Positions 352 through 32,624 of a DNA stretch of 32,624 nt are shown here, one piece after another (the first letter of the stretch is position 1; the number at the start of each line of letters is the position of its first letter). The translations under genes and the position numbers were made by a program. This DNA is from Verrucomicrobiota bacterium. GTDB taxonomy: Bacteria > Verrucomicrobiota > Verrucomicrobiia > Verrucomicrobiales > DEV007. The DNA lies in NCBI GenBank assembly GCA_020630975.1, contig JAHDID010000062.1:1-32624 (forward strand), in the 5' to 3' direction. Under the pieces are notes generated by a model. That model was not told the origin of the DNA. It saw nothing but the letters and a program-made list of their open reading frames with translations, and did not search any database.

Positions 352-2391
352 TTAGCTCAGAAAAAATTCCATACCTGGGTGCATTGTCAGGCAAGGAAGA
401 ACAGAAATATCTCGCCCATCAACAACCCGATTGTGGACAGGGTCACTAGCATTTTGAAGAATTCCGAATCCAGCTAATCCATTGGAGATTAGAACTGCAG
501 CTATTCTTAGATTGAAATCCCTATATTGTTTCTCACGCACATCTAAAAGAACGCAACGATTATGAATAATAGCTTTTGTTCCGATTAGCGGTGAGATTTC
601 ATCTTCGATAAAATCTCCATACAGCTCTCCGGGATTCTCATACCAGAGTTCAAAAACTGCTACAGCTGATAAAAGTGAAAGATAACTTCCTGTGTTCTCA
701 ATGAACAAATTCACTTCGGCTATTCCACCTTCTAAAATGTGCCTTATAACGGATTCCACTTTATCTACTGATCGCCATACTAGACTTTCCGTAGCAACCG
801 TGACGTAACGCTTTGCAAAGAACATCATCAGAAACTGGCAAACTACACACCATCTTTCAACCGTGGCGTCAAAATCGTTATCGGCAGCCTCATGAAGCAG
901 CGGCTTGCCCAACCATTGAAAAATCTTCTCGAAAGTATGTCCCCCGCGAAAGAATCCCCCTCTATCGAGCTTTTCACCCAGAGTCTTTAGCTCCCTTTCA
1001 AGCTTAAAATTTGCACTGTTAGATGACAACGAATTAAGGTTTGGCGAGCGATTCGGATCACTCTGATTATCAATCAATTCTTCGAGCACAAAAACGCGTC
1101 GAACTCGTAGGACTCGTGGCTCAGAATTTTGATTTTCTGGAAGTTTTATCTTTAAGAAGGAATTCAAATCGGTTGATTCAACTCTCCAGTGCCCCAATTT
1201 TACCAACTGATCAGCGAACCACTTTTCCTTTCGACACCACTCCGAGCTATAGTAATTATCTGAGTCAATTATGGAAATGCAATTTGAACACGCAAGATTC
1301 TCAAATACAAATTTTCTGTTAATTACCCTCCGCGGCATGCACAAACAGTCGAGGAACACACCAGCAGGAGCTTCATTTGAGTCGTTGTTTAAAAGGTGCG
1401 AAATTAATTCTGCTTTCGAATCGCTACCGCGATGACTAAGAAAGACATCGTATTGAATTTCAGGTCTCTTGAAAGATTTTTTTTCTAGATGAATTTCTGG
1501 CCGACGAGCAATCCCTGAAGCCATCCACATCAAATCGCAGGCCGTAATTTCATCATTAGCCAGAGCAGCTTGAATAAGCTTAATAACTTTTTGCATAGAG
1601 TCACACTCAAACGGCTGAATTGACCTGGTATCACGCCCATAGGAAAGAACAAAACGGTTTCCACGCCTCCGATCCTCATATGGCGTATGCTCAGCAACAA
1701 AAATACATTCATCGACAAAGCTAACTAGCGCTGCAATTGTCCAAGATAATGAAACAACAATCTTCGATTCAATGGGGAACAATTTTTGCGCTTCCGAGAG
1801 TTCATCTTCAATCTCAATTTGATGCTTTAACTCGTCTAGAGATCCCCAACCGTCACGAGAAAATTCAAACAAGTTGAGAGTTGGTTGTTCTTTATCTTCG
1901 GAATCGAAATAAAGTAGGGCAAATTCTCCCAGAAGTGTAGTGAGAGTATGAGCAAAAGGAGTTTTTTCAACCAAAACAGAATTTCTGAAGATATTCATCA
2001 CCGGCACCTGTAGATGTCCGTTTTCTCCGCCTAGAGTAGCGGCTAACGAGAGCATATCAGGGTCTGAAGTTCTTTCCAGCCATGACAGGACCTCGTATTG
2101 GGAAGTTTGTAAATCCGCTCCTAGATGCTTGAGAATAGCTCCTATCTGGACTGTACTATCATTGACCGCCTGGATTAAGTTCTCTGGAAGTTGATCGATT
2201 TTTTCTTGCAGTTTCGATATGGCGCCAGGCTTATCCAAAATGTGTCCAACCCCTCCAAGACCCTCTTCTTGAGTCATTGGATCCAATTCTGTAATGTCTG
2301 TGCTAGTGGGCTTGAACCCAGCATCAAAGCTTGAAAGTGATTCAAAGCTAAATCTAACAAGATTTTGAATATTTGTTAGTTTTGTTGCCAT
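352..2391 (-). CDS. TIR-domain protein with large unknown N- and C-terminal regions
   Basis: This is a 679-residue protein if it starts at the ATG at 2391; an in-frame GTG at 2412 would add seven residues. A TIR domain lies in the middle, about residues 313-440. It opens with YDVFLSHRGSDS (from Y314) and has SSEWCRKEKWF, where E389 is at the usual position of the catalytic glutamate of NADase TIR domains. The first ~310 residues and the last ~230 residues match nothing I recognise, and no membrane segment or signal peptide is evident. A central TIR is unusual because most bacterial TIRs are terminal. The gene is visibly more AT-rich than the divergent TIR-CHAT-STAND gene, which suggests separate acquisition. 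The divergent arrangement suggests joint regulation. A role in anti-phage NAD depletion or signalling is inference. Confidence 0.85.
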   Translation of the reverse strand: MATKLTNIQNLVRFSFESLSSFDAGFKPTSTDITELDPMTQEEGLGGVGHILDKPGAISKLQEKIDQLPENLIQAVNDSTVQIGAILKHLGADLQTSQYEVLSWLERTSDPDMLSLAATLGGENGHLQVPVMNIFRNSVLVEKTPFAHTLTTLLGEFALLYFDSEDKEQPTLNLFEFSRDGWGSLDELKHQIEIEDELSEAQKLFPIESKIVVSLSWTIAALVSFVDECIFVAEHTPYEDRRRGNRFVLSYGRDTRSIQPFECDSMQKVIKLIQAALANDEITACDLMWMASGIARRPEIHLEKKSFKRPEIQYDVFLSHRGSDSKAELISHLLNNDSNEAPAGVFLDCLCMPRRVINRKFVFENLACSNCISIIDSDNYYSSEWCRKEKWFADQLVKLGHWRVESTDLNSFLKIKLPENQNSEPRVLRVRRVFVLEELIDNQSDPNRSPNLNSLSSNSANFKLERELKTLGEKLDRGGFFRGGHTFEKIFQWLGKPLLHEAADNDFDATVERWCVVCQFLMMFFAKRYVTVATESLVWRSVDKVESVIRHILEGGIAEVNLFIENTGSYLSLLSAVAVFELWYENPGELYGDFIEDEISPLIGTKAIIHNRCVLLDVREKQYRDFNLRIAAVLISNGLAGFGILQNASDPVHNRVVDGRDISVLPCLTMHPGMEFFLS

Positions 2392-2465
2392 AATAAATAA
2401 TAGCAAATCCACACTCTATGCCAAACAACATTTCAATTTTTCCCTTTGTAGACACATATTAAGGG

Positions 2466-2486: not shown

Positions 2487-2632
2487 ATTTAGTATTTTGA
2501 CATTTGTCTAAACAAGGATCAGATCTGGCCTATCCCTTCTACAATGGATTCTCAATCTCCGCTCCTCCGGAAAAGCTTGGCACAAAGAAAGATCACAGAT
2601 ATTCTTTGGGTGTTCGTTTTAGGACTGCACCC

Positions 2633-5600
2633 ATGAAGCCAAACTTACCTGTGTCGCCCGTCCCCACCGGCGAGCCGCTCACCATTTTTATCTCCCACAC
2701 ATCCGCAGACGACACGACCGTGGCTCGACTGCGCAGGGTGCTGCGGGCGGAGGGATACGTGGTGCGGGAGGATGGCACTTCTTTTGATGTCACTCAGACT
2801 CTGCCGACCCAAATCCAGGAGTTACTCGATCACTGCCATCGAGTTATCGTGCTGGTCAGCGAGGCTGCCGCAGAGTCTTCTTGGGTAGCTCGGGAGATTC
2901 GCTATGCGGTTCGCGATCGAAAGCTCGGCATCAAAAATGTGATCCCCATCCTCCTGCCAGAGGCCACTACCGACCATCTGCAAAAGGTGTTCAGCCTCGA
3001 AGAAAAAGAGGGCGAAGAAGACTTGTTGGAATATTACCCCGAGGAGCCTATCGCCATCGTTACCGATGGCACACCTCAAAATCCCAATCTCAGTGCTATT
3101 TTGCCGACTCTGAGCGAGCGGCTACGGGGGCGCTCTTTCTACGGGGAGGATACCGGTGGCGAGCAGCAGGTCGGCGAAGCCTTCGCCGAGCTGACCTTCG
3201 AGATCATCGAGCCGTTTATCGATGAGGAAGACCAAAGCTCCGCTCGGTGTCTACTGCATTTCACGCCTCCTGGCGATAGCGCCCCATCACTGTCCAGCGA
3301 GCCGTTCTGGTTTACCCCACCCATCGGCGTGATCGAGGCTGGCGAGATCAGCTTCTACCTAGAGCGCTACCACATCACTCCCTTTGGCCAGTTCACTGAG
3401 CGTAAGGAAAAAATCGAAGCCGCGCTGGCCCAGTGGGGCGAGCAGCTCTACCAGGCACTCGCCCCCAGCGTGCACGATGCGCTGTTTGGCCTGTGGGAGG
3501 AGCATGCCAGTGCGCCTCGGCGTTTCACCATCCTCACCCAAAAGGTGCCGCGCGATCCCGATATCCCCAATCCGCAGAAGCATCCGGTGGTGGCCGAGAT
3601 TCTGTCGCTACCCTGGGAGCTACTGCACGATGGCGATGCCTACTTTTTCAAAGACGGTCGCGGTGCCCGAGTACGCCGCTGTCTGCCCACTGCCAAGCGC
3701 CTGGCCGCCCCGCAGACATCGCACGTCGAGCCGCCACTGCGGGTGCTGATCGTCTGCTCCCGGCCAGAGAGCGATGCTGCTGGCTACATCGATCACCGGG
3801 TATCGGCGCGTCCGCTGGTCGAGGCGCTGGAGTCTCTCGGCGACCTCGCCACCTGGGACATCCTCGCCCCGGCGACATTGGCCAATCTCCGCGCCACCGT
3901 CGATGCTGCCTACGCGGAGCATCGTCCCTACCACATCGTCCATTTCGATGGCCACGGCATCTACGATCGGCACCTGGGGCTAGGCCAGCTGGTCTTCGAG
4001 GCGGCAGACGACGACAGCCTGCAGGATCGCAAGGATGAGTTAGTCGATGCCGAGACCCTCGGCGGCGAAATCTCTCGAAAGGGCGTGCGCCTTTTCTTCC
4101 TAGAGGCCTGCCAGAGCGCCCAGAGCGGCGACGAGACCGATTCCTCCGTGGCTGGTAAATTAATCGGTGCCGGGATACCCTCGGTGGCGGCGATGTCGCA
4201 CTCCGTTTTGGTCGAGACAGCCCGCCAGTTCACCAGCGTATTCTACCCCGCGCTGCTCCGTGGCCGCCGAGTTGGCTCGGCGATGCTCGAGGGGCAGCGA
4301 GCGCTGGCCGCCGATAGGATGCGCGATCCGCGGGTGCCGCTGGAGCTGGACGATTGGTTTGTGCCGATCCTATTCCAGCACAGCAGCGACGAGCCGGTGC
4401 TGGAGGTATCGCCACCATCGGAGCGGATCCAGCACGAGTTGGCGAAGCACCGCGCACTCTACTTCGGCGCTGTGCCACCGCCGCCGCAGCACAGCTTCAT
4501 CGGACGTAGCCGCCAGCTGCTGATGGCCGAGCGGCTGCTGATCGAGCGCGATCTGCCATGGGTCCTATTTCGTGGCGAGGGTGGCGAGGGCAAGACCACC
4601 ACCGCTGCGGAGCTGGCACGCTGGCTGGTGCAGAGCCGCCCCCGCCAATTGCCGCGCGCCGCCTTTGCCTCGGTGGAGTTAATCAGCGACCTGCGCGCCA
4701 TACTCTGCGAGTGGGGCGAGCAGCTACTGCCCAATGACTTTGTCAGCCGCGCCGAGACCGAGGAGGCAGCCATCGAGCTACTGATCGCAGTGCTCGACGA
4801 CACGCCAGCGGTATTGATCCTAGATAATCTCGAATCCATCCTGCCCGATCCCAGTGCCGAGGGCGACAGCAGCGACATCGCTGAGGAGCAGTCCCGACTG
4901 CTGCCCGCGATCCACCAGATCCTAGCACGCAGCCCACGTACCAAGCTGATCCTGACCTCGCGCGAGCTACCGCCCGAGTCGAGCCGCTACCGCAGTGCCG
5001 ACCAGACCATCGGCCTCGGCCGCCTAGCCCCGAGCGAGGCCAAGGAGCTGGTCGCCAATGTGCTAGCCGCCGAGGCGAAAAAGCGCGGCCAGCAGGTAAA
5101 GGCGCACCAGCTCGAGATCGAGAAAGAGGAGGAGATCTCCCACCTAGTCGAGCTGGTCCACGGCCATGCGCGGGCGATCTGTCTGCTCACCCCGGAGCTA
5201 TTTGATCGGGGCCTGCGGGCGACGGCTACTGATCTCGCCGAGATCATGGTCGAGATGCAGACACGCGAGGGCGCAGGCCGCGAGACTTCGTTGATGGCGA
5301 GCATGGAGCTATCTCTGCGGCGGCTACCGGCCGAGGTGCGGGCGGGGCTATTGCCACTGGGCGTGTTTCAAGGTGGGGCGAGTCTCATTGCCTTCGCCGA
5401 ATGCATCGGGGTGGATGTTTTCAAAGACGAAGCAGTGCCCTACGTGCGGGGCTTGTTGCAGACTGGGCTGGCCGAATATATCCCCCTAAAACTTCCCTAC
5501 CTTCGCTTCGATCCCGCCCTGGCTCCGGCCCTGCTCCACGAGCTGCGCCAGTCCAGCCCCGCAGCCGAGATCGATGCCCGCCGCAGCTGGATCGACGCCT

Positions 5601-7222
5601 ATCGGCAGCTAGCTGGATTTCTGGCGCAGCAACAAGGCTCAGACATTCATCTAGCCTACCAGCTGACTCGAATGGAGTTGCCCAATCTACTGGCCGCTCT
5701 AGATGCCTTTGCCAGCGATCAGGATGCCGAGGCGGTGGTTGCCTTTGCTACGGATTTGGAATCCCTCCTGGCTAGTCTGCATATACCGACAGCGATGGCT
5801 CGGGTGATCCGCATTCGCGAAGCGGCTGCCAGAGCCCTAGCAGGTGCTCCATGGTCGGAGGCTGCCTTCCTGGCGCAAAGACAGAAAATCGAACGATGCT
5901 GGGCAAACTCGCAGATCAGGGAAGCGCTCGCCCTGGCAGAGAACTTGGTAGAAAAAACGACCACAGCTGGACCGGCTGCCTATTCAGGGGCCGATTACGA
6001 TATAGCGGTGGCTTTTTTAACTCTAGGGCGCGCTCAGCGACTGGCTGGGCGAGCATCGCTGGCATTGGCCGCCCTCGAAAAAGCACAGGCAGAATTCGGG
6101 CGTATCGCCGAGGAGCGGGATAACCAGAATGCCGCCCGGATGGCATCGGTCTGCCTCACAGAGCGTGCGGACTGCCTATGCGACGAAAGGCAGCTGGATA
6201 AGGCAGCCGAATTGTATCAAGAAGCCATCGAACGAGCCCGAACATTGGAAGATCATCATGCCGTAGGTGCAGGGACCCACCAGCTGGCCACCTGTCGATT
6301 GCTGCAGCAGCAGTATGGCGAAGCGATTGCCTTGTATGAGAAAGCAAAAGACCTCTTCGAATCTCTCAATGAACCCAAAGAAGTCGCAATCTCCTGGCAT
6401 CAAGTCGGAATCGTTTTTGAACGAACTCGACAATGGGAGCAAGCGGAAAATGCCTACCAACAATCCCTCCGGATCAAGGTTCAAATAGCCGACCAGGCTG
6501 GCGAAGCCAGTAGCCGTGCCCAGCTTGGTAGTCTTTACATGAGAATGGGCCGATTAGAGGATTCGGTGGTGTTTCTCCGACGAGCTGCCGAGATCGACGT
6601 GGAGCTTGGCGATACCCAGAATGAAGGCCTAACACTCAGCAACCTCGCGCAAAGCCTGATCCTGCTGAATCGCCACGACGAAGCTCGTACCGCACTGAAT
6701 CGAGCTACCGCATGCAATTCCCAGTTTGGAATCTCCACCGAACCCTGGAAAACGTGGAACATCCTCGCCGATCTCGAGCAGGCTACCGGAAATCCCAGTG
6801 CCGCCACCCAAGCGAAACAAAAAGCCATCCATGCCTACGCCGAAGCCCGCCGCCGTGGCTGGCAGGAAACTAATGGAGCCGGGGCCGAACTCTGCGCAAC
6901 CACGCACGCCGTGATCACCCAGCAGCCCGAAGGCATACCCGAGACAAAGGCCCAACTCCAGCAACTCGCCAGCCAATCTGATGCCCCTGACTACTTCAAA
7001 GCCCTGATCCAGCAACTGCTGCTCCTGCTAGATGGCTCCCGCGACCCCTCGCTCTGGCAGCATCCCGATTTGGATTACGACGACGCCACCGAGATCCTGC
7101 TATTACTCGAAAAACTAGCTGCACCCGCCACCCCGTCGCTAGACGCAGGCCAGATACGCCAGATCGCAGAGGAAAACGACATCGATCTCGCTGCCCTATC
7201 TAGCGAGGAAAAGTCAGTCTGA
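2633..7222 (+). CDS. TIR-CHAT-STAND NTPase-TPR protein (NLR-like candidate immune receptor)
   Basis: This is a 1529-residue protein from the ATG at 2633; an in-frame TTG at 2504 would add 43 residues not needed for any domain. In order: a TIR domain (about 17-125; TIFISHTSADD, then SSWVAREIRYA with E88 at the catalytic position); a CHAT caspase-like protease domain (about 200-580; LPWELLHDGD, then HFDGHG with H441 and LEACQS with C493 as the likely His/Cys dyad); a STAND-type NTPase (about 620-960; Walker A GEGGEGKTT with K654, Walker B VLILDNLE with D731, sensor-like LILTSRE, and a GHARA motif); then TPR-like helical repeats (about 1120-1405). In known STAND proteins the repeats sense a trigger, the NTPase oligomerises and the N-terminal effector fires. 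Here two effectors, a possible NADase and a protease, are fused. Defence function is inferred from architecture. Confidence 0.93.
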   Translation: MKPNLPVSPVPTGEPLTIFISHTSADDTTVARLRRVLRAEGYVVREDGTSFDVTQTLPTQIQELLDHCHRVIVLVSEAAAESSWVAREIRYAVRDRKLGIKNVIPILLPEATTDHLQKVFSLEEKEGEEDLLEYYPEEPIAIVTDGTPQNPNLSAILPTLSERLRGRSFYGEDTGGEQQVGEAFAELTFEIIEPFIDEEDQSSARCLLHFTPPGDSAPSLSSEPFWFTPPIGVIEAGEISFYLERYHITPFGQFTERKEKIEAALAQWGEQLYQALAPSVHDALFGLWEEHASAPRRFTILTQKVPRDPDIPNPQKHPVVAEILSLPWELLHDGDAYFFKDGRGARVRRCLPTAKRLAAPQTSHVEPPLRVLIVCSRPESDAAGYIDHRVSARPLVEALESLGDLATWDILAPATLANLRATVDAAYAEHRPYHIVHFDGHGIYDRHLGLGQLVFEAADDDSLQDRKDELVDAETLGGEISRKGVRLFFLEACQSAQSGDETDSSVAGKLIGAGIPSVAAMSHSVLVETARQFTSVFYPALLRGRRVGSAMLEGQRALAADRMRDPRVPLELDDWFVPILFQHSSDEPVLEVSPPSERIQHELAKHRALYFGAVPPPPQHSFIGRSRQLLMAERLLIERDLPWVLFRGEGGEGKTTTAAELARWLVQSRPRQLPRAAFASVELISDLRAILCEWGEQLLPNDFVSRAETEEAAIELLIAVLDDTPAVLILDNLESILPDPSAEGDSSDIAEEQSRLLPAIHQILARSPRTKLILTSRELPPESSRYRSADQTIGLGRLAPSEAKELVANVLAAEAKKRGQQVKAHQLEIEKEEEISHLVELVHGHARAICLLTPELFDRGLRATATDLAEIMVEMQTREGAGRETSLMASMELSLRRLPAEVRAGLLPLGVFQGGASLIAFAECIGVDVFKDEAVPYVRGLLQTGLAEYIPLKLPYLRFDPALAPALLHELRQSSPAAEIDARRSWIDAYRQLAGFLAQQQGSDIHLAYQLTRMELPNLLAALDAFASDQDAEAVVAFATDLESLLASLHIPTAMARVIRIREAAARALAGAPWSEAAFLAQRQKIERCWANSQIREALALAENLVEKTTTAGPAAYSGADYDIAVAFLTLGRAQRLAGRASLALAALEKAQAEFGRIAEERDNQNAARMASVCLTERADCLCDERQLDKAAELYQEAIERARTLEDHHAVGAGTHQLATCRLLQQQYGEAIALYEKAKDLFESLNEPKEVAISWHQVGIVFERTRQWEQAENAYQQSLRIKVQIADQAGEASSRAQLGSLYMRMGRLEDSVVFLRRAAEIDVELGDTQNEGLTLSNLAQSLILLNRHDEARTALNRATACNSQFGISTEPWKTWNILADLEQATGNPSAATQAKQKAIHAYAEARRRGWQETNGAGAELCATTHAVITQQPEGIPETKAQLQQLASQSDAPDYFKALIQQLLLLLDGSRDPSLWQHPDLDYDDATEILLLLEKLAAPATPSLDAGQIRQIAEENDIDLAALSSEEKSV

Positions 7223-16919: not shown

Positions 16920-16974
16920 TCAATAGGGTACAGTCCTGATTCAATAGGGTACAATTTTGACTCAATAGGGTACA
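16920..16974. repeat. Three copies of a 13-bp motif at 21-bp period
   Basis: TCAATAGGGTACA occurs at 16920-16932, 16941-16953 and 16962-16974, exactly 21 bp apart, with different 8-bp spacers. The first copy follows the SurA-like stop by 9 bp and the last ends 7 bp before the next ATG. The same triplet with the same period follows the exbD gene at 32549-32603. The 13-bp unit is too short for a CRISPR repeat. Confidence 0.92.
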
Positions 16975-16981
16975 CTGCCCC

Positions 16982-26859: not shown

Positions 26860-26896
26860 CTACATAGAGTTAGCCTTCAACTGACTGACTTCCCTC
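26860..26896 (+). repeat. 37-bp palindromic repeat, copy 1
   Basis: This stretch, from CTACATAGAGTTAGCC to GACTTCCCTC, matches 30403-30439 at 32 of 37 positions. All five differences are transitions. The core is a hairpin with loop around CTTCA, imperfect in this copy. Both copies lie upstream of genes of the TPR/ExbBD cluster. Confidence 0.8.
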
Positions 26897-27075: not shown

Positions 27076-27175
27076 TCGAAGGGTGAAACGACCAAACACG
27101 AAGCCCTCATGAGCCAACAAAAGATGGTGACTCATTCGGCAGATTATGTTGTGATTCTCCCTGCGAGTATTCATG
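27076..27175 (+). repeat. ~100-bp dispersed repeat, copy 2
   Basis: This is the second copy of the 10059-10157 repeat. Its last three bases are the ATG start codon of the TPR gene at 27173, so the repeat supplies the whole translation initiation region of that gene. No Shine-Dalgarno is evident within it. Confidence 0.85.
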
Positions 27176-30049
27176 CCTCGATATTCTCCAGCCCTATTTG
27201 TCTTCCTGCTGCTTGCCTGTCTGGGCATCTGCTCCGCTGCAGTCGAGGTGCCAGCGCCGGGGGCCTTTCTTGAGCTAGATCTGCGCAACCAAGCGGTAGC
27301 GGCTTTCCAGCAGGGCGACTTCGAAAAAGCCGAGGGCCTGCTGCTGGCTTATGAGCGGGACTTTGGCGAGGAGACCTCTGAGGAGATCGCCACTTTCATC
27401 AAAAAGAGCTACGCGCTGATCGCGCTCTGCCAGATCACCAATGGCCGCCCTGCCGATGCGGCGCCCTACATCGATAAAGCGCTACAGCACAAAGAGTTGC
27501 TGACGCTACCCGTCTACGAGGAGCTATCCTACTGGCAGGCCGTCCTGCTCCTCCAGGCAGGGGACTTCCGCGCTGCGCAGCAGGCTTTTGGCGAGTTTTT
27601 CGCGCAGAGTCGCTTCCCGCTCGCTCGCCGACTCGAGGCGCTTTCGATCTTTGGTACCTGCTATGTCATGCAGGGCTATCACCGCACGGCAGCAGAATTT
27701 TTCGCCCACCAGATCCCCAATCTGCGCAAAGCCAAAGGTGGCGCAGCCTACGTATCGCGCGCCACAGTGCTGCGCATGATCTCGCTAGTACAGGCCGAGC
27801 AGTACGACGAGGCCTTTGCCTGGATGCTAGAGGTCTACCCACGCCTGGAGGAGCTCGACCAGATGGTCACCTTCCAGATGATGGCGCTATCCCTCGCCTC
27901 TCACTACATGGATGAGGAAAAGCCCTACCAGGCCATCGCCTGCATGCAGCGTATCTGGCCCGCAGAGCGGCTCCTCACCCGCCAGCGCGAAAAGCTCTCC
28001 GCCCTCGAGCAGAGCTACGAGGAGCTAAAAGAAAACAGCCCACTCGAGCAGGCAAAACTCTTCCAGCTAGATGGCACCATCCAGCGGATCAAACGCGAGA
28101 TCGAAAACTTCGAGTCCATCCCCGACTTCGATGCCGCACTGCGCCTGCGCATGGCCATGGCCTTTCAGCAGCTCGAGCGCTACCGCGAGGCAGCTCTGAT
28201 CATGGAGGACATGCTGCAGCGCATGGAGCCCAGCCCCGTCGTGGAGTCCGCCTCCCTAGCCGTCATCCAGTGCTGGAGTCAGCTGCAGCGCTGGCCCCGC
28301 GCGGTGAAAGCTGCGGAAAACTACCTGCAGGCATTTGGCGACGATGCGACCAATAAAAACCTACCTCAGGTGCTCTTCATGCAGGCCGATGCCATGATGC
28401 AGCAGGAGCTACCGCGCGATGCCGAGGGCGTCTTTGCCAATATCGCCCGCTCGTTTCCCGATCATCCATTGTCCAATAAAGCACGCTTCATGAGCGGTTT
28501 CTGCCAGCTACAGCAGGATGACAATGAGAAAGCTATCCAGACCTTTTCCACCGTGATGGAGAATGAGGCCAAAGACTCCTCCCTCTACGAGGATGCCTTT
28601 TTCTGGACCGGCAATGCCTACTCCTACTCCCAGCTCTATGCCGAGGCCAAAGCGCACATGGCTGACTACCTGGAAACTTTTGGCAAAGGCAAGGCACGCT
28701 ACGAGAGCCAGGCGGCCTTTCGCATGGCCTACTGCACCTTCTGCGAGGCCGACTACCCCGCATCGATCAGCGAGTTTCGCACCTTTCTAGCCGACTATGG
28801 CCCCTCCGCCCCCGACCGCGACGAGGCCTACCTGCTACTCGGCGATGCCCTGCTCGGCGAGGGCGAGGCAGACGATGGCATCGCCGCCTACTCGACCATC
28901 CGCCCCGAGTCGACACGCTTTTTCGAGGATGGCTACTTCAAGACGGGCAAAGCCTACAAGCTACTCGAGGAGGTGCCCACCATGCGCCAGCACTACCAGG
29001 ACTTTCTAGAAAAATATCCCGACTCCAAGCGCATGCCCGAGGCCGTCTACTGGATCGGCTGGACCCATGTGCACACAGGTGAGCTAGACCTAGCCAAAAA
29101 AGCCTACTGGGATACCATCGTAGCCCACGGCGACAATCCCGAGCTCTACGCCATCGAGGAGCTGCTGATGGGTCTGCCAAAGATCTACAAACGCGGCGGC
29201 CCCGATGCCATGTCCGAGCTATCCAGCGCACTTTTCTCCCAGCAGATCGCCGCCGAAAAGGCCAAAAAAGCCACCCTGCACCTGCGCCTGCTCTGGGCCA
29301 ATGCCATGCTCAAGCGGCGCGAGGGCAAAGACCAAGATGCTGCCATCCTCCTGCTCCGCGTGGCTCATCTCGTCGATCCCGAGATCCACAATCCCCAGAT
29401 CGTAGCCGATGCCGCCGACGCTCTCGCTGCTAAAGGCGACTACAAAGTCGCCACCAAACTCTACCACGAGCTGCGCAAGTGGAACCCTATCTCCTTTCTC
29501 AAAGCCCGCGCCTACAAAGGCCTCGGCATGATCGCCCAACAGCAAAAAGACTACGACGAAGCCATCCGCCAGTACCGCGCCTTTGAGAAACAAGCCGCCG
29601 CCTCCACCGAGCTGGCCGACATCCAGCTGCGCCGCATAGGCCTACAGATGCAGCAGAAAGACAACGCCTCGTCCGACGTAGTAGCCGATCTCGAGGCGCT
29701 CCTAGAGAATCCCGTCGCCTCCTCCGAGCACAAGGCAAAGGCCATTTATCTGATCGGCGAAAAGCTCTACTCCGATGGCGCCTACCTCAAGTCCACCGCC
29801 TACTACGAGCGTGTCTATGTGATCTATGGCAAATACCGAGACCTAGTCGCCAAAAGCTACTACCGCCGTGGCGAGGCCCTCGAGCAGCTCGACGAAAAGA
29901 CCAAAGCCTACGAGGTCTACCACGAGCTAGCCCACCGCAAAGATCTCGCCGACTACCGCGAAGCCCAGCTAGGCCGCCGCCGCATGGATGCCCTCAGCGC
30001 CTTTGCACCGACCGAGGAAGAAGACGATGAGAAAGGAGGCCAGCCATGA
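27173..30049 (+). CDS. Exported TPR-repeat protein of an ExbB/ExbD cluster
   Basis: This is a 958-residue protein with a signal peptide (PALFVFLLLACLGICSA, about residues 6-22) and an otherwise helical body of TPR-like units to near residue 930. Examples are AVAAFQQGDFEKAEGLLLAY (about 36), MAFQQLERYREAALIMEDML (about 330) and MSGFCQLQQDDNEKAIQTFS (about 440), with further units such as ARAYKGLGMIAQQQKDYDEA (about 780). It should act as a periplasmic scaffold. In this lineage such proteins are often encoded with ExbB and ExbD, as here, and may work with TonB- or Tol-type energy transduction; that link is inference. The start is the ATG at the end of the dispersed repeat. Its last codons contain AAAGGAGG, and its stop overlaps the next start as ATGA. 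Confidence 0.9.
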   Translation: MPRYSPALFVFLLLACLGICSAAVEVPAPGAFLELDLRNQAVAAFQQGDFEKAEGLLLAYERDFGEETSEEIATFIKKSYALIALCQITNGRPADAAPYIDKALQHKELLTLPVYEELSYWQAVLLLQAGDFRAAQQAFGEFFAQSRFPLARRLEALSIFGTCYVMQGYHRTAAEFFAHQIPNLRKAKGGAAYVSRATVLRMISLVQAEQYDEAFAWMLEVYPRLEELDQMVTFQMMALSLASHYMDEEKPYQAIACMQRIWPAERLLTRQREKLSALEQSYEELKENSPLEQAKLFQLDGTIQRIKREIENFESIPDFDAALRLRMAMAFQQLERYREAALIMEDMLQRMEPSPVVESASLAVIQCWSQLQRWPRAVKAAENYLQAFGDDATNKNLPQVLFMQADAMMQQELPRDAEGVFANIARSFPDHPLSNKARFMSGFCQLQQDDNEKAIQTFSTVMENEAKDSSLYEDAFFWTGNAYSYSQLYAEAKAHMADYLETFGKGKARYESQAAFRMAYCTFCEADYPASISEFRTFLADYGPSAPDRDEAYLLLGDALLGEGEADDGIAAYSTIRPESTRFFEDGYFKTGKAYKLLEEVPTMRQHYQDFLEKYPDSKRMPEAVYWIGWTHVHTGELDLAKKAYWDTIVAHGDNPELYAIEELLMGLPKIYKRGGPDAMSELSSALFSQQIAAEKAKKATLHLRLLWANAMLKRREGKDQDAAILLLRVAHLVDPEIHNPQIVADAADALAAKGDYKVATKLYHELRKWNPISFLKARAYKGLGMIAQQQKDYDEAIRQYRAFEKQAAASTELADIQLRRIGLQMQQKDNASSDVVADLEALLENPVASSEHKAKAIYLIGEKLYSDGAYLKSTAYYERVYVIYGKYRDLVAKSYYRRGEALEQLDEKTKAYEVYHELAHRKDLADYREAQLGRRRMDALSAFAPTEEEDDEKGGQP
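30032..30039 (+). promoter_or_regulatory. Strong Shine-Dalgarno fixing the start at 30046
   Basis: AAAGGAGG lies six bases before ATG 30046, inside the end of the TPR gene, and the ATG overlaps its stop (ATGA). This is the best ribosome binding site in the window. It shows that 30046 is, or originally was, the start of the next gene even though repeat sequence follows it. Confidence 0.85.
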
Positions 30050-31344
30050 TCGATCGACGCGACTTTTCGGCCGATGCAAATGCCCCAGCCTGCTGGGCAG
30101 CTAAAGGCAGCCCCTCCTTGACCGAGAGTCTCCGCAAAATAGCGAAGCGCCCCAAGGAGCGGCGACGTCTCGTCGCTGGGCAACCTCGGCCATCGGGCTG
30201 GTGCGCCATACTCGGCCAGAGCTTCACGACGCTGCTCGATTCTTTGGCTCAGCCTGCCGGGCGACGAGACGTACGCCCCTCCTTGAGCTTCACATCTCGA
30301 TCAAACAAAGGGTTCCAAAGAATTAAGCCCCAAGGAGGGGCTGCCTTCAGCTGCCCGGCTACCTCGGCCGCAACACATGCCTCCACCCACCAACCTTCCG
30401 GCCTACGTAGGGTCAGCCTTCAGCTGACCGACTTCCCTCTACCCCAGCTCAGCTACACCCTCCCCCTCCTTACCATCCTCCTATTCCTCACCACTCTCAT
30501 CACCTCCGCTCAGGAGACCATCCACCTCCGCGATGGCCGCTCCCAGTCAGGCACCATCCTCTCGCAGGCAGACAAAGGCCTCGCCTTCGAGTTCACCAAC
30601 CAGACCACTGGCAAAAAGGTGCAGATGAATATCCTCTGGGAAAATATCGAGCGCATCGAGTTTCCCAGTAGCCTGCTGCTAATCGACGCACTCTCCAAGC
30701 CCACTCGCACCGAGCTGCGCATCTACGCCCAGCTATGGCAAGAGCTAGAGCCATGGCTCAGCCGACCCGATTCTCGCACTGCCGAGCTCGGCCTCGTCTA
30801 TGCCAAGCGTCTCGCCACCTCCGGCGAGCAGATGGCCCCCGAGCAGGCACTCGATCTCTACCACCTCATCGCCGAGCACGCCTGGAGCGCCCAGCATCGC
30901 ACCACCGCCGCCCGCGAGAAGTTCACCCTCATGCTCGATATGGGGCAGCAGCGCAAAGCCCTAAAGGAACTGGAAGCCCTAGCCCAGACCTACGACGATC
31001 CTGGCTATGTCATCGAGGCCAAATATGTACTCGCCAGCCGCGCCTTTGAGAAACTCAAAACCCTCGAGGCCGAAAACCCTCGCTGGCAGCTGGACGATGA
31101 TATCCGCCCCGTCCGCCACCAGACCTTCAATGAAGCCATCGACCAGGCGCTCTACCCACTACTCTTCCACGGACATCTGGCCGATCCCACTGCCCGCGGG
31201 CTACTACTCATCTCAGAGGTGTATGAGTACGTCGAGGATTACCCCAAAGCAAAAACCTACGCCGGCGACGTGATCCGGCTCTACTCAGAGTCCAGCTACG
31301 AACCCGCCGCCCAAGAGCAAAGCAAAAGCCTTTCAAAGAAATAA
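30046..31344 (+). CDS. Exported helical-repeat protein with REP-like array inside its N-terminal frame
   Basis: The 432-codon frame begins at an ATG with an excellent Shine-Dalgarno and ATGA overlap. Residues ~10-135 are translated from REP-like and palindromic repeat DNA (basic, Arg/Ser/Pro-rich). A hydrophobic stretch LPLLTILLFLTTLITSA (139-155) followed by QE looks like the original signal peptide, now internal. After it comes a small beta-rich unit (TIHLRDGRSQSGTIL, then ILWENIERIEF, about 158-205) and a mainly helical part with TPR-like character to the end. No ATG, GTG or TTG lies in frame between 30286 and the beta unit, so the repeat probably expanded inside the gene. The product either has a long cytoplasmic leader or is impaired. 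It sits 6 bp before exbB. Family unrecognised. Confidence 0.7.
   Translation: MIDRRDFSADANAPACWAAKGSPSLTESLRKIAKRPKERRRLVAGQPRPSGWCAILGQSFTTLLDSLAQPAGRRDVRPSLSFTSRSNKGFQRIKPQGGAAFSCPATSAATHASTHQPSGLRRVSLQLTDFPLPQLSYTLPLLTILLFLTTLITSAQETIHLRDGRSQSGTILSQADKGLAFEFTNQTTGKKVQMNILWENIERIEFPSSLLLIDALSKPTRTELRIYAQLWQELEPWLSRPDSRTAELGLVYAKRLATSGEQMAPEQALDLYHLIAEHAWSAQHRTTAAREKFTLMLDMGQQRKALKELEALAQTYDDPGYVIEAKYVLASRAFEKLKTLEAENPRWQLDDDIRPVRHQTFNEAIDQALYPLLFHGHLADPTARGLLLISEVYEYVEDYPKAKTYAGDVIRLYSESSYEPAAQEQSKSLSKK
30093..30358. repeat. REP-like palindrome array (four units, alternating orientation)
   Basis: Four units headed by CAAGGAG: 30093-30120 (minus), 30152-30181 (plus), 30256-30285 (minus) and 30331-30358 (plus). 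The outer two agree at 26 of 28 positions when one is inverted; their core is GGGGCTGCCTTCAGCTGCCC. The inner two share the head and a hairpin around ACGTCTCGTCGC. A GGAG-containing head followed by an imperfect palindrome, in inverted pairs, is the layout of REP/BIME elements mobilised by RAYT (TnpA-REP) enzymes. No RAYT gene lies in the window, so a mobile origin is inference. Confidence 0.75.
30403..30439 (+). repeat. 37-bp palindromic repeat, copy 2
   Basis: This is the partner of 26860-26896. Here the hairpin is perfect: GGTCAGC and GCTGACC (30411-30429) around loop CTTCA, preceded by GTAG. It reads through in the N-terminal frame of the 30046 gene. The loop and flanking AGC/GCT resemble those of the outer REP-like units. 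Confidence 0.8.
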
Positions 31345-31350
31345 TACTCA

Positions 31351-32133
31351 ATGAATACCAGAGCCATATTGACCCTAGCGTTACTACTCGGTGCGTTCTT
31401 TACCCTGCCCGATCTGGCGCTCGCCCAGGACGCAGCTGGAGACATCGTCGAAAAAAAGACCATCATCACCTACTACAAAGATGGTGGCCCTACGATGCAC
31501 GTGCTACTCATCGGCCTGATCGCTACCGTCGCACTCACCATCTACCTATTCATCGCCATCAGCGCGTCGAAGATGGTACCCAAAAAGCTAGTCGACAGTG
31601 TCAACGTAGCCATGGCCAATCGCGATATCCAAGGCGCCTACGATCTGGTCAATCAAACTCCGTGCTCCTACTCCAAATGCATGAGCAATGCCCTACTGAT
31701 GGTCAACTTTGAGCGCGACCTAGCCAACAAAGCCTCCATGGTGGTCGCTGCCGAAGACACACTCGATCAGGAGGAGACCAAAGTGACCGGCCTGATCAAC
31801 TACCTCAATACCATCTCCACCCTAGCTCCCATGGTCGGACTCTTTGGCACCGTCATCGGTATGATCACAGCCTTTGGCCAGCTGACTGCCGGAAAGGCAG
31901 AGCCATCCGATCTAGCAGGCGGTATCGGTACCGCCATGCTCACCACGGCAGGCGGGCTACTGGTCGGCATCCCGGCGATGTTCTTTTACTTCTTCTTCAA
32001 AAACCGCCTAGCCGCTGTCACCACCGAGATCCAAAAGCAGTTCAGCTACGCGATCGACGTGCTCTCCGGCGAGATCCAGCTACAGCAACCTCAGCAACAA
32101 CCCGATACTACACCACCACAAACCGTTGATTAA
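31351..32133 (+). CDS. exbB: ExbB/TolQ/MotA-family proton channel protein
   Basis: This is the inner-membrane subunit of an Exb/Tol-type proton channel that powers outer-membrane processes with ExbD. It has 260 residues. An apparent cleavable signal (ILTLALLLGAFFTLPDLALA, ending AQD) is followed by membrane helix MHVLLIGLIATVALTIYLFI (about 49-68), a cytoplasmic domain, and the conserved pair of helices. These read YLNTISTLAPMVGLFGTVIG (about 150-170) and GIGTAMLTTAGGLLVGIPAM (about 190-210), typical of MotA/TolQ/ExbB proteins. The C-terminus is Gln/Pro-rich. The extra N-terminal signal is common in this lineage. It lies 6 bp after the repeat-bearing gene and 2 bp before exbD. The exact paralogue (ExbB or TolQ) cannot be fixed from sequence, so the symbol is provisional. 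Confidence 0.9.
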   Translation: MNTRAILTLALLLGAFFTLPDLALAQDAAGDIVEKKTIITYYKDGGPTMHVLLIGLIATVALTIYLFIAISASKMVPKKLVDSVNVAMANRDIQGAYDLVNQTPCSYSKCMSNALLMVNFERDLANKASMVVAAEDTLDQEETKVTGLINYLNTISTLAPMVGLFGTVIGMITAFGQLTAGKAEPSDLAGGIGTAMLTTAGGLLVGIPAMFFYFFFKNRLAAVTTEIQKQFSYAIDVLSGEIQLQQPQQQPDTTPPQTVD

Positions 32134-32135
32134 TT

Positions 32136-32546
32136 TTGAGTAGGCGAAAGAAAAAGTCCGACGCTCCGGTCAGCTTTCAGATCACTCCGATGATCGATAT
32201 GACCTTTTTGCTACTGGTATTCTTCATGGTCACCTCCGTACTGACCGAGCAGAAGACCAATAAAGATATCGACCTACCCGAGGCCACCGCCTCCATCGCC
32301 CCAAAGAACCATACTCTCCGAGAAGTCATTAATATTGACAAAAAAGGCAACTACTCACTATCCAATAAAACGGTAACCAAAGAAGACCTATCCGCCTATC
32401 TGAAAAAACGCTTCGGCGTGACCACTCCTTACGTCGTCTACCTCCGTGCCGATAAAAACATGCACGCCGAAAAGATCGGCGAATTCATGGAGATCGCCAC
32501 CGAGGCCAGAGTAGAGAAAGTGATCTTTGGCGTGCTGAATGACTAA
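32136..32546 (+). CDS. exbD: ExbD/TolR-family protein
   Basis: This is a 136-residue partner of ExbB, starting at TTG 32136, two bases after the exbB stop; no upstream ATG is available. A basic cytoplasmic head (SRRKKKSDAPVSFQITPMID) leads to the single membrane helix MTFLLLVFFMVTSVL. D21 in TPMIDMTF, at the start of the helix, is the conserved proton-carrying Asp. The periplasmic domain ends VVYLRADKNMHAEKIGEFME and VEKVIFGVLND, as expected for ExbD. It directly follows ExbB, so the pair is complete. No TonB is seen; further genes may lie beyond the window. The 21-bp-period repeat cluster begins directly after its stop. Confidence 0.92.
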   Translation: MSRRKKKSDAPVSFQITPMIDMTFLLLVFFMVTSVLTEQKTNKDIDLPEATASIAPKNHTLREVINIDKKGNYSLSNKTVTKEDLSAYLKKRFGVTTPYVVYLRADKNMHAEKIGEFMEIATEARVEKVIFGVLND

Positions 32547-32548
32547 AT

Positions 32549-32603
32549 TCAATAGGGTACAATAAACACTCAATAGGGTACAATAAACACTCAATAGGGT
32601 ACA
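32549..32603. repeat. Three copies of the 13-bp motif at 21-bp period (second cluster)
   Basis: TCAATAGGGTACA is at 32549-32561, 32570-32582 and 32591-32603. The period is 21 bp, as at 16920-16974. Here the spacers are nearly identical (ATAAACAC), so this cluster looks younger or more homogenised. It begins 3 bp after the exbD stop. Confidence 0.92.
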
Positions 32604-32624
32604 ATCGCTTGAACAGACGCAGAA

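What the first reader, a model, noticed from the sequence alone, without database searches (positions are those of the whole stretch)
30046..30439. REP-like array embedded in a reading frame between a strong RBS/ATG and the signal peptide
A perfect Shine-Dalgarno and ATGA overlap mark 30046 as the gene start. About 390 bp of palindromic repeats then follow in frame before the signal-peptide segment, and no other canonical start is usable close to it. In-frame growth of a mobile palindrome inside an exported protein is rare and may have created a new cytoplasmic N-terminal domain or a regulated start.
Basis: partly seen in the sequence, partly recalled or inferred. Interest (0 to 1): 0.65.

Follow-up and report, generated by a model that had tools for sequence, protein, structure and literature searches.

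The report
Mobile palindromes inside cleaved signal peptides
In this bacterium small mobile DNA palindromes have repeatedly inserted, in reading frame, into the throw-away export tag at the start of secreted proteins, where the extra peptide they encode is probably cut off and does no harm.

Summary
At 30046-30439 a Shine-Dalgarno/ATG overlapping the previous gene's stop is followed by about 370 bp of palindromic repeats, open in frame, then a signal-peptide core. The repeats are a REP/REPIN family (128 exact heads in this genome, 0 in the control) with a RAYT gene flanked by perfect copies. Orthologues before ExbB lack the array: their mature part begins 18-26 residues after the start (16 of 19 loci read); here 155.

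It is not isolated. Among 107 arrays in 1.03 Mb of this genome, 17 sit in a gene's 5' end directly before a signal-peptide core (11 with no ATG/GTG in between, 6 ambiguous). All 17 frames are open through the repeat, and three reading frames are used. No array lies well inside a called gene. A related REPIN in another family's genome sits in a prepilin leader, also a cleaved tag.

Best reading: REPINs survive inside genes here mainly where the encoded peptide is discarded with the leader. Translation through the array is inferred, not measured, and three related genomes show one or no leader case. REPs, REPINs and in-frame palindromes are known; I found no paper on a signal-peptide habitat.

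The parts
27173..30049 (+). Upstream gene: TPR protein (signal peptide by eye), its stop overlaps the next ATG
   Evidence: ORF; TPR Pfam matches
30032..30039 (+). Shine-Dalgarno AAAGGAGG
   Evidence: sequence; AGGAGG/GGAGG before the start also in 16 of 19 orthologue loci
30046..31344 (+). Gene with the in-frame array; 432 aa, exported protein of unknown function upstream of ExbB/ExbD
   Evidence: no Pfam family; only sub-cut-off NCBIfam matches, one to tol-pal YbgF
30064..30120 (-). Truncated A-type REPIN: loop and right palindrome A' (GCTGGGCAGCTAAAGGCAGCCCCTCCTTG)
   Evidence: boundary 30064 by eye against full A-REPINs
30153..30285 (+). B-type REPIN: left palindrome 30153-30180, right about 30252-30285 (degenerate, 7 mismatches)
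   Evidence: hairpin with unpaired CAAGGAG head
30331..30369 (+). A-type REP with the start of its loop; right half missing
30402..30436 (+). C-type REP: GTAG head plus perfect 7-bp stem; a second family
   Evidence: z -3.97
30454..30510 (+). Signal-peptide hydrophobic core and site (YTLPLLTILLFLTTLITSA / QETIHL, residue 156)
   Evidence: cleavage site by a simple rule and by eye
31351..32133 (+). ExbB/TolQ-type proton channel gene (operon context)
   Evidence: PF01618; ExbB motif follows the gene in 18 of 19 orthologue loci
32136..32546 (+). ExbD/TolR-type gene (operon context)
   Evidence: PF02472

Best explanation
The array is a cluster of REP/REPIN elements, copied by a RAYT (family match and linkage shown; mobilisation inferred). 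They inserted just after the start codon of an exported protein's gene. The ribosome starts at ATG 30046, reads through about 124 codons of repeat and then makes a normal signal-peptide core (inferred from frame, start position and orthologues). The repeat-coded residues become an oversized cytoplasmic n-region and are cut off with the signal peptide, so the mature protein is unchanged (inferred). Because the leader is disposable, insertions there survive when the frame is kept. This makes signal peptides, and once in a related genome a prepilin leader, a tolerated habitat for REPINs inside genes.
For: (1) REP family and RAYT; RAYT over the NF047646 cut-off (83.2 vs 80; 76.4 in the six-frame search), flanked on both sides by B REPINs with 0 mismatches. 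(2) Empty sites: 16 of 19 orthologue loci have a Shine-Dalgarno-preceded start 18-26 residues before the mature motif; ExbB follows in 18 of 19. (3) Recurrence: 17 genes with a REP array directly before a signal-peptide core. By one rule 17 of 17 have the core against 190 of 444 other genes (Fisher 8e-7; strict set 11 of 11, 1e-4). (4) All 11 strict cases, with no ATG/GTG between array and core (TTGs occur), are open through the array to an upstream ATG (in the L057 sulfatase that ATG lies between an older degenerate repeat and the array). The three longest arrays (542, 384, 335 nt) each have one open frame of three, and it is the one in use. (5) In 12 of 17 genes (8 of 11 strict) an upstream ATG lies within -13 to +11 nt of the last base of the previous gene's stop, and in several the codons before the array read like a basic n-region: MKNRFRHQHSR, MKRFFHNVIA, MMKRSFRN. 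(6) 14 of the 16 genes besides the window's match Pfam families: sulfatase, PSCyt1/DUF1553, DUF1592, ASST and others, mostly exported as far as I recall. (7) 0 of 107 arrays lie more than 60 nt inside a called coding segment and 0 hold a gene's stop, although 81% of the sample is called coding. (8) G236: REPIN in a prepilin leader, MRNTN-KEG...PLLG/FTLTELLVVIAIIA.
Against: No protein, transcript or ribosome data. The leader bias is strong only in this genome: related families gave 1 leader case among the 14 unit places (10 arrays) of G236 and none among the 52 places of G239 or the 16 of G044. There, what look like in-frame insertions also sit in gene interiors (L235, L255, L268, L334). Frame conservation alone is modest: chance 0.003 over the 9 strict multi-unit arrays. 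Six of 17 cases have an ATG or GTG after the array that could be the start, and L060 has a Shine-Dalgarno/GTG 17 nt before its array as an alternative to the ATG. In L057 sulfatase, L076, L119, L122 and L125 the ATG does not have tight operon spacing. The signal-peptide rule is home-made; with its n-region clause only 12 of 17 pass when the array is removed, this gene failing, against 167 of 444. The case list was drawn up after looking at the data. The RAYT is a non-exported gene whose frame also runs through an array (so 17 of 18 through-read genes are exported), and one doubtful ORF (L058, negative codon score) overlaps a C unit.
Confidence: 0.7

Rival explanations
1. Misannotated start: the array is a 5' leader of the mRNA and translation begins after it at a weak codon (CTG 30424 here, TTG or GTG elsewhere). 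This is how PMC3733652 reads most N-terminal REPs.
For: Six of 17 cases have an ATG or GTG after the array. PMC3733652 argues this for most 5'-end REPs of P. putida, C. koseri and S. maltophilia (section 15 read).
Against: All 11 strict cases stay open to an upstream ATG; the three longest arrays use their only open frame. Starts right after an array would lack a Shine-Dalgarno (the repeat ends in CCCCTCC) and often a basic n-region. Many upstream ATGs have operon spacing (12 of 17), and orthologues have the same Shine-Dalgarno type before their start.
Confidence: 0.18
2. Regulated start or new domain: the array's CCUCCUU ends mask the Shine-Dalgarno, or the encoded peptide has a cytoplasmic role.
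For: In the short 5' fold AAGGAGG pairs with CCUCCUU of the first repeat; the whole array folds very stably.
Against: The short fold is no better than shuffles (z 0.53). Three different frames are translated across genes, so no shared peptide is kept.
Confidence: 0.06
3. The insertions reflect where RAYT inserts (gene 5' ends) rather than what selection tolerates.
For: A rough estimate gives n-regions at least the REP density of intergenic DNA (my arithmetic, no call). Flanks of element ends show a weak shared bias.
Against: I saw no shared target next to the leader insertions (by eye); 17 of 18 through-read genes are exported, which a 5'-end target would not predict. Not exclusive of the best explanation.
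Confidence: 0.15
4. Assembly chimera or dead gene: the repeat joined unrelated contigs, or the gene is broken.
For: The genome is a 158-contig draft and several contig ends lie in REPs (for example C57, C82, C112, C119, C154).
Against: Wrong joins would not repeatedly give ATG plus basic residues, repeat in frame, then signal core. The gene is followed by ExbB as in relatives and most array genes match known families.
Confidence: 0.04

Closest known systems
REP / REPIN elements with RAYT (TnpA-REP) transposases
   Same: Unpaired head plus hairpin, inverted pairs with a loop, clustered arrays, over 100 copies in one genome, mostly between convergent or co-directional genes, RAYT flanked by perfect copies.
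   Different: Main head is CAAGGAG, not GTAG or CGTC (the minor C type has GTAG). A sizeable share lies in frame inside leader-coding DNA; PMC3116915 reports that of 1,067 core 16-mers only 14 overlap genes in P. fluorescens SBW25 (passages).
Intragenic GTAG/CGTC REPs (PMC3733652, 2013)
   Same: In-frame REPs inside ORFs, including many in the verrucomicrobium Opitutus terrae.
   Different: They report insertions along many ORFs, many in DNA-repair genes, and suspect many N-terminal ones to be misannotation. The main text holds no 'leader', 'secreted' or 'export', and 'signal' twice in other senses; its Additional file 3, which lists the ORFs, I could not read.
Rickettsia palindromic elements (RPE)
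   Same: Palindromic mobile repeats translated in frame inside host proteins (PMC10969869, passages).
   Different: In unrelated metabolic genes with a conserved encoded peptide, per that review; here three frames are used and the genes are mostly exported ones.
Extended signal peptides of autotransporters (recalled, no call)
   Same: Long N-terminal extension before a Sec core.
   Different: Those extensions are conserved host sequence; these are repeat insertions.

Membership tests
REP/REPIN | Short palindrome with an unpaired conserved head, dispersed in many copies | tested here: met
   (single A unit z only -0.72; B -2.86; C -3.97)
REP/REPIN | Inverted pairs forming a long hairpin (REPIN) | tested here: met
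   AA' 87 nt z -8.77 and BB' 100 nt z -12.00, one example each
REP/REPIN | GTAG or CGTC head (two super-families of PMC3733652) | tested here: not met
   A and B units have CAAGGAG; only C units have GTAG. The super-family label is withheld for A and B.
REP/REPIN | Cognate RAYT gene flanked by the same repeats | tested here: met
   G000:C57:68.7 kb, B units with 0 mismatches on both sides; the 15 other match loci carry none. Further matches seen only (such as C25:10445) were not examined.
REP/REPIN | Extragenic location | tested here: inconclusive
   0 of 107 deep in called genes, but 11 strict and 6 ambiguous cases inside 5' coding ends
REP/REPIN | Mobilised by the RAYT protein | not testable with these tools
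   needs biochemistry
Rickettsia palindromic element | Conserved encoded peptide across insertions | tested here: not met
   QGG, KEG and RRG frames all used

The most novel reading that the evidence does not exclude
Leader-coding DNA (signal peptides, prepilin leaders) is a general safe harbour for selfish palindromes: the element is transcribed, translated and thrown away with the cleaved leader, so exported-protein genes can carry REPINs invisibly, and leader lengths in such genomes are set partly by selfish DNA.
Probability: 0.35. Interest if true: 0.75.

Novelty: new variant of a known kind. Interest (0 to 1): 0.6.

Why it matters
REPs are by name extragenic, and N-terminal REPs have been put down largely to misannotation. 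Here frame use, start position and orthologues point to real translation and to a simple rule for where mobile palindromes can live inside genes. It predicts signal peptides of roughly 40 to 200 residues that are ordinary after cleavage, warns that signal-peptide predictors and start-site callers may fail on these genes, and gives a natural set for asking how long an n-region the Sec system tolerates.

Tried and rejected
They are enriched for repeats by design, and the background genes come from the same stretches. Naming the organism: the first genome scan found nothing; Mfd relatives are mostly Verrucomicrobia MAGs, best 88% over part of the protein; the window's own genome has no name here. 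Same family elsewhere: at most 5 heads in each of the 32 other same-genus genomes against 142 here; 4 of 288 genomes drawn from the order, the own one included, match the A REPIN at DNA level. Idea that RAYT inserts at Shine-Dalgarno sequences because the head AAGGAG looks like one: not supported for the leader cases, whose arrays start 14-112 nt after an ATG with no such sequence directly at the left edge, by eye. A second REP family (C type and a few stray A/B places, 20 further stretches with 21 arrays): no new leader case; L287 and L292 have a start after the repeat. Shine-Dalgarno masking: not above shuffles. A first, stricter signal-peptide rule gave 12 of 17; the later core-only rule 17 of 17; both are told. 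An automatic start-codon table (after the array a start 12 open/7 closed, none 9 open/6 closed) was too coarse, since it missed starts lying behind a stop after the array; it was replaced by reading each case. Density of REPs in n-regions against intergenic DNA was only estimated by hand. A Haloquadratum paper holding MITE and N-terminal extension terms (PMC3119063, 12 of 23 passages read) does not join the two.

Full report
What is there. The window is contig C89 of a 7.14 Mb, 158-contig draft genome. Its Mfd protein is closest to Verrucomicrobia MAGs. A TPR gene ends at 30049; the next gene starts at ATG 30046 behind AAAGGAGG and runs to 31344. ExbB and ExbD genes follow. From about 30064 to 30436 the frame runs through palindromes: a truncated A-type REPIN, a B-type REPIN, an A-type half and a C-type unit. 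A home-made codon-usage score calls coding only from 30421. Then comes a hydrophobic core and the mature start QETIHL at residue 156.

It is a REP/REPIN family. The array has 140 matches in its own genome. The exact head occurs 128 times, the reversed control 0. A and B units fold as hairpins with an unpaired CAAGGAG head, and an AA' and a BB' pair as long hairpins with z -8.77 and -12.00. C units carry GTAG (28 places with up to 3 mismatches). In 81 stretches (1,031,643 bases) I counted 107 arrays with 187 units, 101 A, 78 B and 8 C. Of 16 Y1_Tnp match loci one, at C57:68.7 kb, lies between two B REPINs with 0 mismatches; the 15 others have no unit in the stretch held. Its protein passes the NCBIfam model for REP-associated tyrosine transposases (83.2 against 80; the six-frame search scores it 76.4).

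Orthologues lack it. 23 of 36 genomes searched, the own one included, have the protein, at 27-36% identity outside this genome. Of 22 matches in other genomes 19 came with loci, and I read those: 16 have a start with AGGAGG or GGAGG 18-26 residues before the mature motif; L037, L038 and L039 do not fit this description, L039 being cut by its contig end. The ExbB motif follows in 18 of 19; the one without (L033) has only 444 nt left.

It is recurrent. From the 34 arrays lying at most 160 nt upstream of a called gene and a separate frame scan, 17 abut a signal-peptide core with the frame open through the array. Eleven have no ATG or GTG between the last repeat and the core: L057 sulfatase, L057 DUF1553, L059, L060, L081 WD40/PSCyt1, L105, L108, L119, L122, L130 and the window. 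Three have only a GTG there (L061, L076, L106) and three an ATG (L081 PD40, L099, L125). In many the codons before the array read like n-regions: MKNRFRHQHSR, MGKKFHNSKA, MKRFFHNVIA, MMKRSFRN, MRTFRQRSKFRD, MMRNRISLDSQA; others (MANSEF, MNLPSL, MIDRRDF) are less typical. In 12 of 17 an upstream ATG lies within -13 to +11 nt of the last base of the previous gene's stop. Pfam places 14 of the 16 genes other than the window's in families, mostly ones I recall as exported; L099 and L108 have no match. The RAYT is the one non-exported gene whose frame also runs through an array. In the other 5'-adjacent cases (16 arrays besides these 17 and the RAYT) a start codon lies after the array.

Statistics. 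With one rule applied to both sides, 17 of 17 array genes have the core and site, against 190 of 444 other genes (Fisher 8e-7; strict 11 of 11, 1e-4). A stricter earlier rule on the joined sequence gave 12 of 17 against 167 of 444. A random frame would be open in all 9 strict multi-unit arrays with chance 0.003; L059 (542 nt), L060 (384) and the window (335) each use their only open frame. Over arrays of two or more units, 99 of 300 frames are open. No array of 107 lies more than 60 nt inside a called gene or holds a gene's stop; flanking genes are convergent 35, co-directional 53, divergent 3, contig edge or no gene 16. Five arrays touch a called coding segment: the window, L105 and L098 by 9 nt, the RAYT by 64, and a doubtful ORF in L058 by 23. 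The case list was drawn up after looking, so these p-values are descriptive.

Other genomes. A related REPIN in G236, another family of the order, sits in a prepilin: MRNTN, then the repeat, then G/FTLTELLVVIAIIAAL. That leader is also cut off (established for type IV prepilins; recalled). But this is 1 case among the 14 unit places (10 arrays) of G236. The 52 places of G239 (16 loci and 20 stretches) and the 16 places of G044 gave none; two G236/G239 arrays (L243, L240) lie before exported-looking genes that have their own ATG after the repeat. L255 and L235 (G236), L268 (G239, Mfd-like by eye) and L334 (G044, DUF1553-like by eye) look like in-frame interior insertions. So the leader bias is seen in one genome only.

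Mechanism. RAYTs copy REPINs (inferred from family knowledge). Most insertions into genes are lost. In the first codons of an exported protein an in-frame insertion only lengthens the n-region; the Sec core and cleavage site stay intact and the repeat peptide is discarded (inferred). The frames and orthologues are shown; translation, cleavage and neutrality are not.

Known work. PMC3733652 (section 15, part 1 of section 17, and passages) describes intragenic REPs, notes Opitutus terrae as richest in intragenic GTAG repeats, and suspects many N-terminal ones to be misannotation; its supplement was out of reach. PMC3116915 (passages) finds REPs almost wholly extragenic. PMC10969869 (passages) reviews Rickettsia palindromic elements in genes. 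Searches for REPIN/RAYT or REP with signal peptide, Rickettsia palindromic element with signal peptide, REP with Verrucomicrobia, n-region with repeats, MITE with signal peptide, and REP element with signal sequence gave no paper on this habitat, judged from listings (with 10 of 74 listed, 72, 80) and passages of PMC3119063; the library lacks most subscription journals.

Noticed in passing
window 16921-16976 and 32550-32605: CAATAGGGTACAAT repeated three times at 21-nt spacing at two places; 95 copies with at most 1 mismatch in 999,019 bases of the same genome. A second, non-palindromic dispersed repeat.
   Followed up: partly
window 26864-26886: A degenerate C-type REP (5 mismatches) upstream of the TPR gene.
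   Followed up: partly
L313 (G000) and L314 (G044): The RAYT lies in both genomes next to a DUF1501-like gene (by eye) and is flanked by CAAGGAG REPINs, but with different hairpins: perhaps a conserved RAYT locus with diverged repeats.
   Followed up: partly
L268 (G239:C37:113252): A REP in frame inside an Mfd-like gene (by eye), in line with PMC3733652's remark on DNA-repair genes.
   Followed up: no
L103 (G000:C65:16150): REP-rich open frame of nearly 200 codons before a signal-peptide gene that has its own ATG; may be a leader in the making or chance.
   Followed up: no
window 352-2412 (-) and 2504-7222 (+): Two large neighbouring ORFs on opposite strands; both have a TIR-like stretch by eye, the second also CHAT- and TPR-like parts (no family search).
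   Followed up: no
L298-L318 (RAYT loci of same-genus genomes): Several same-genus genomes carry RAYTs flanked by quite different REP hairpins (for example G004, G005, G007, G008, G015, G040): a ready set for testing the leader habitat in unrelated REP families.
   Followed up: no
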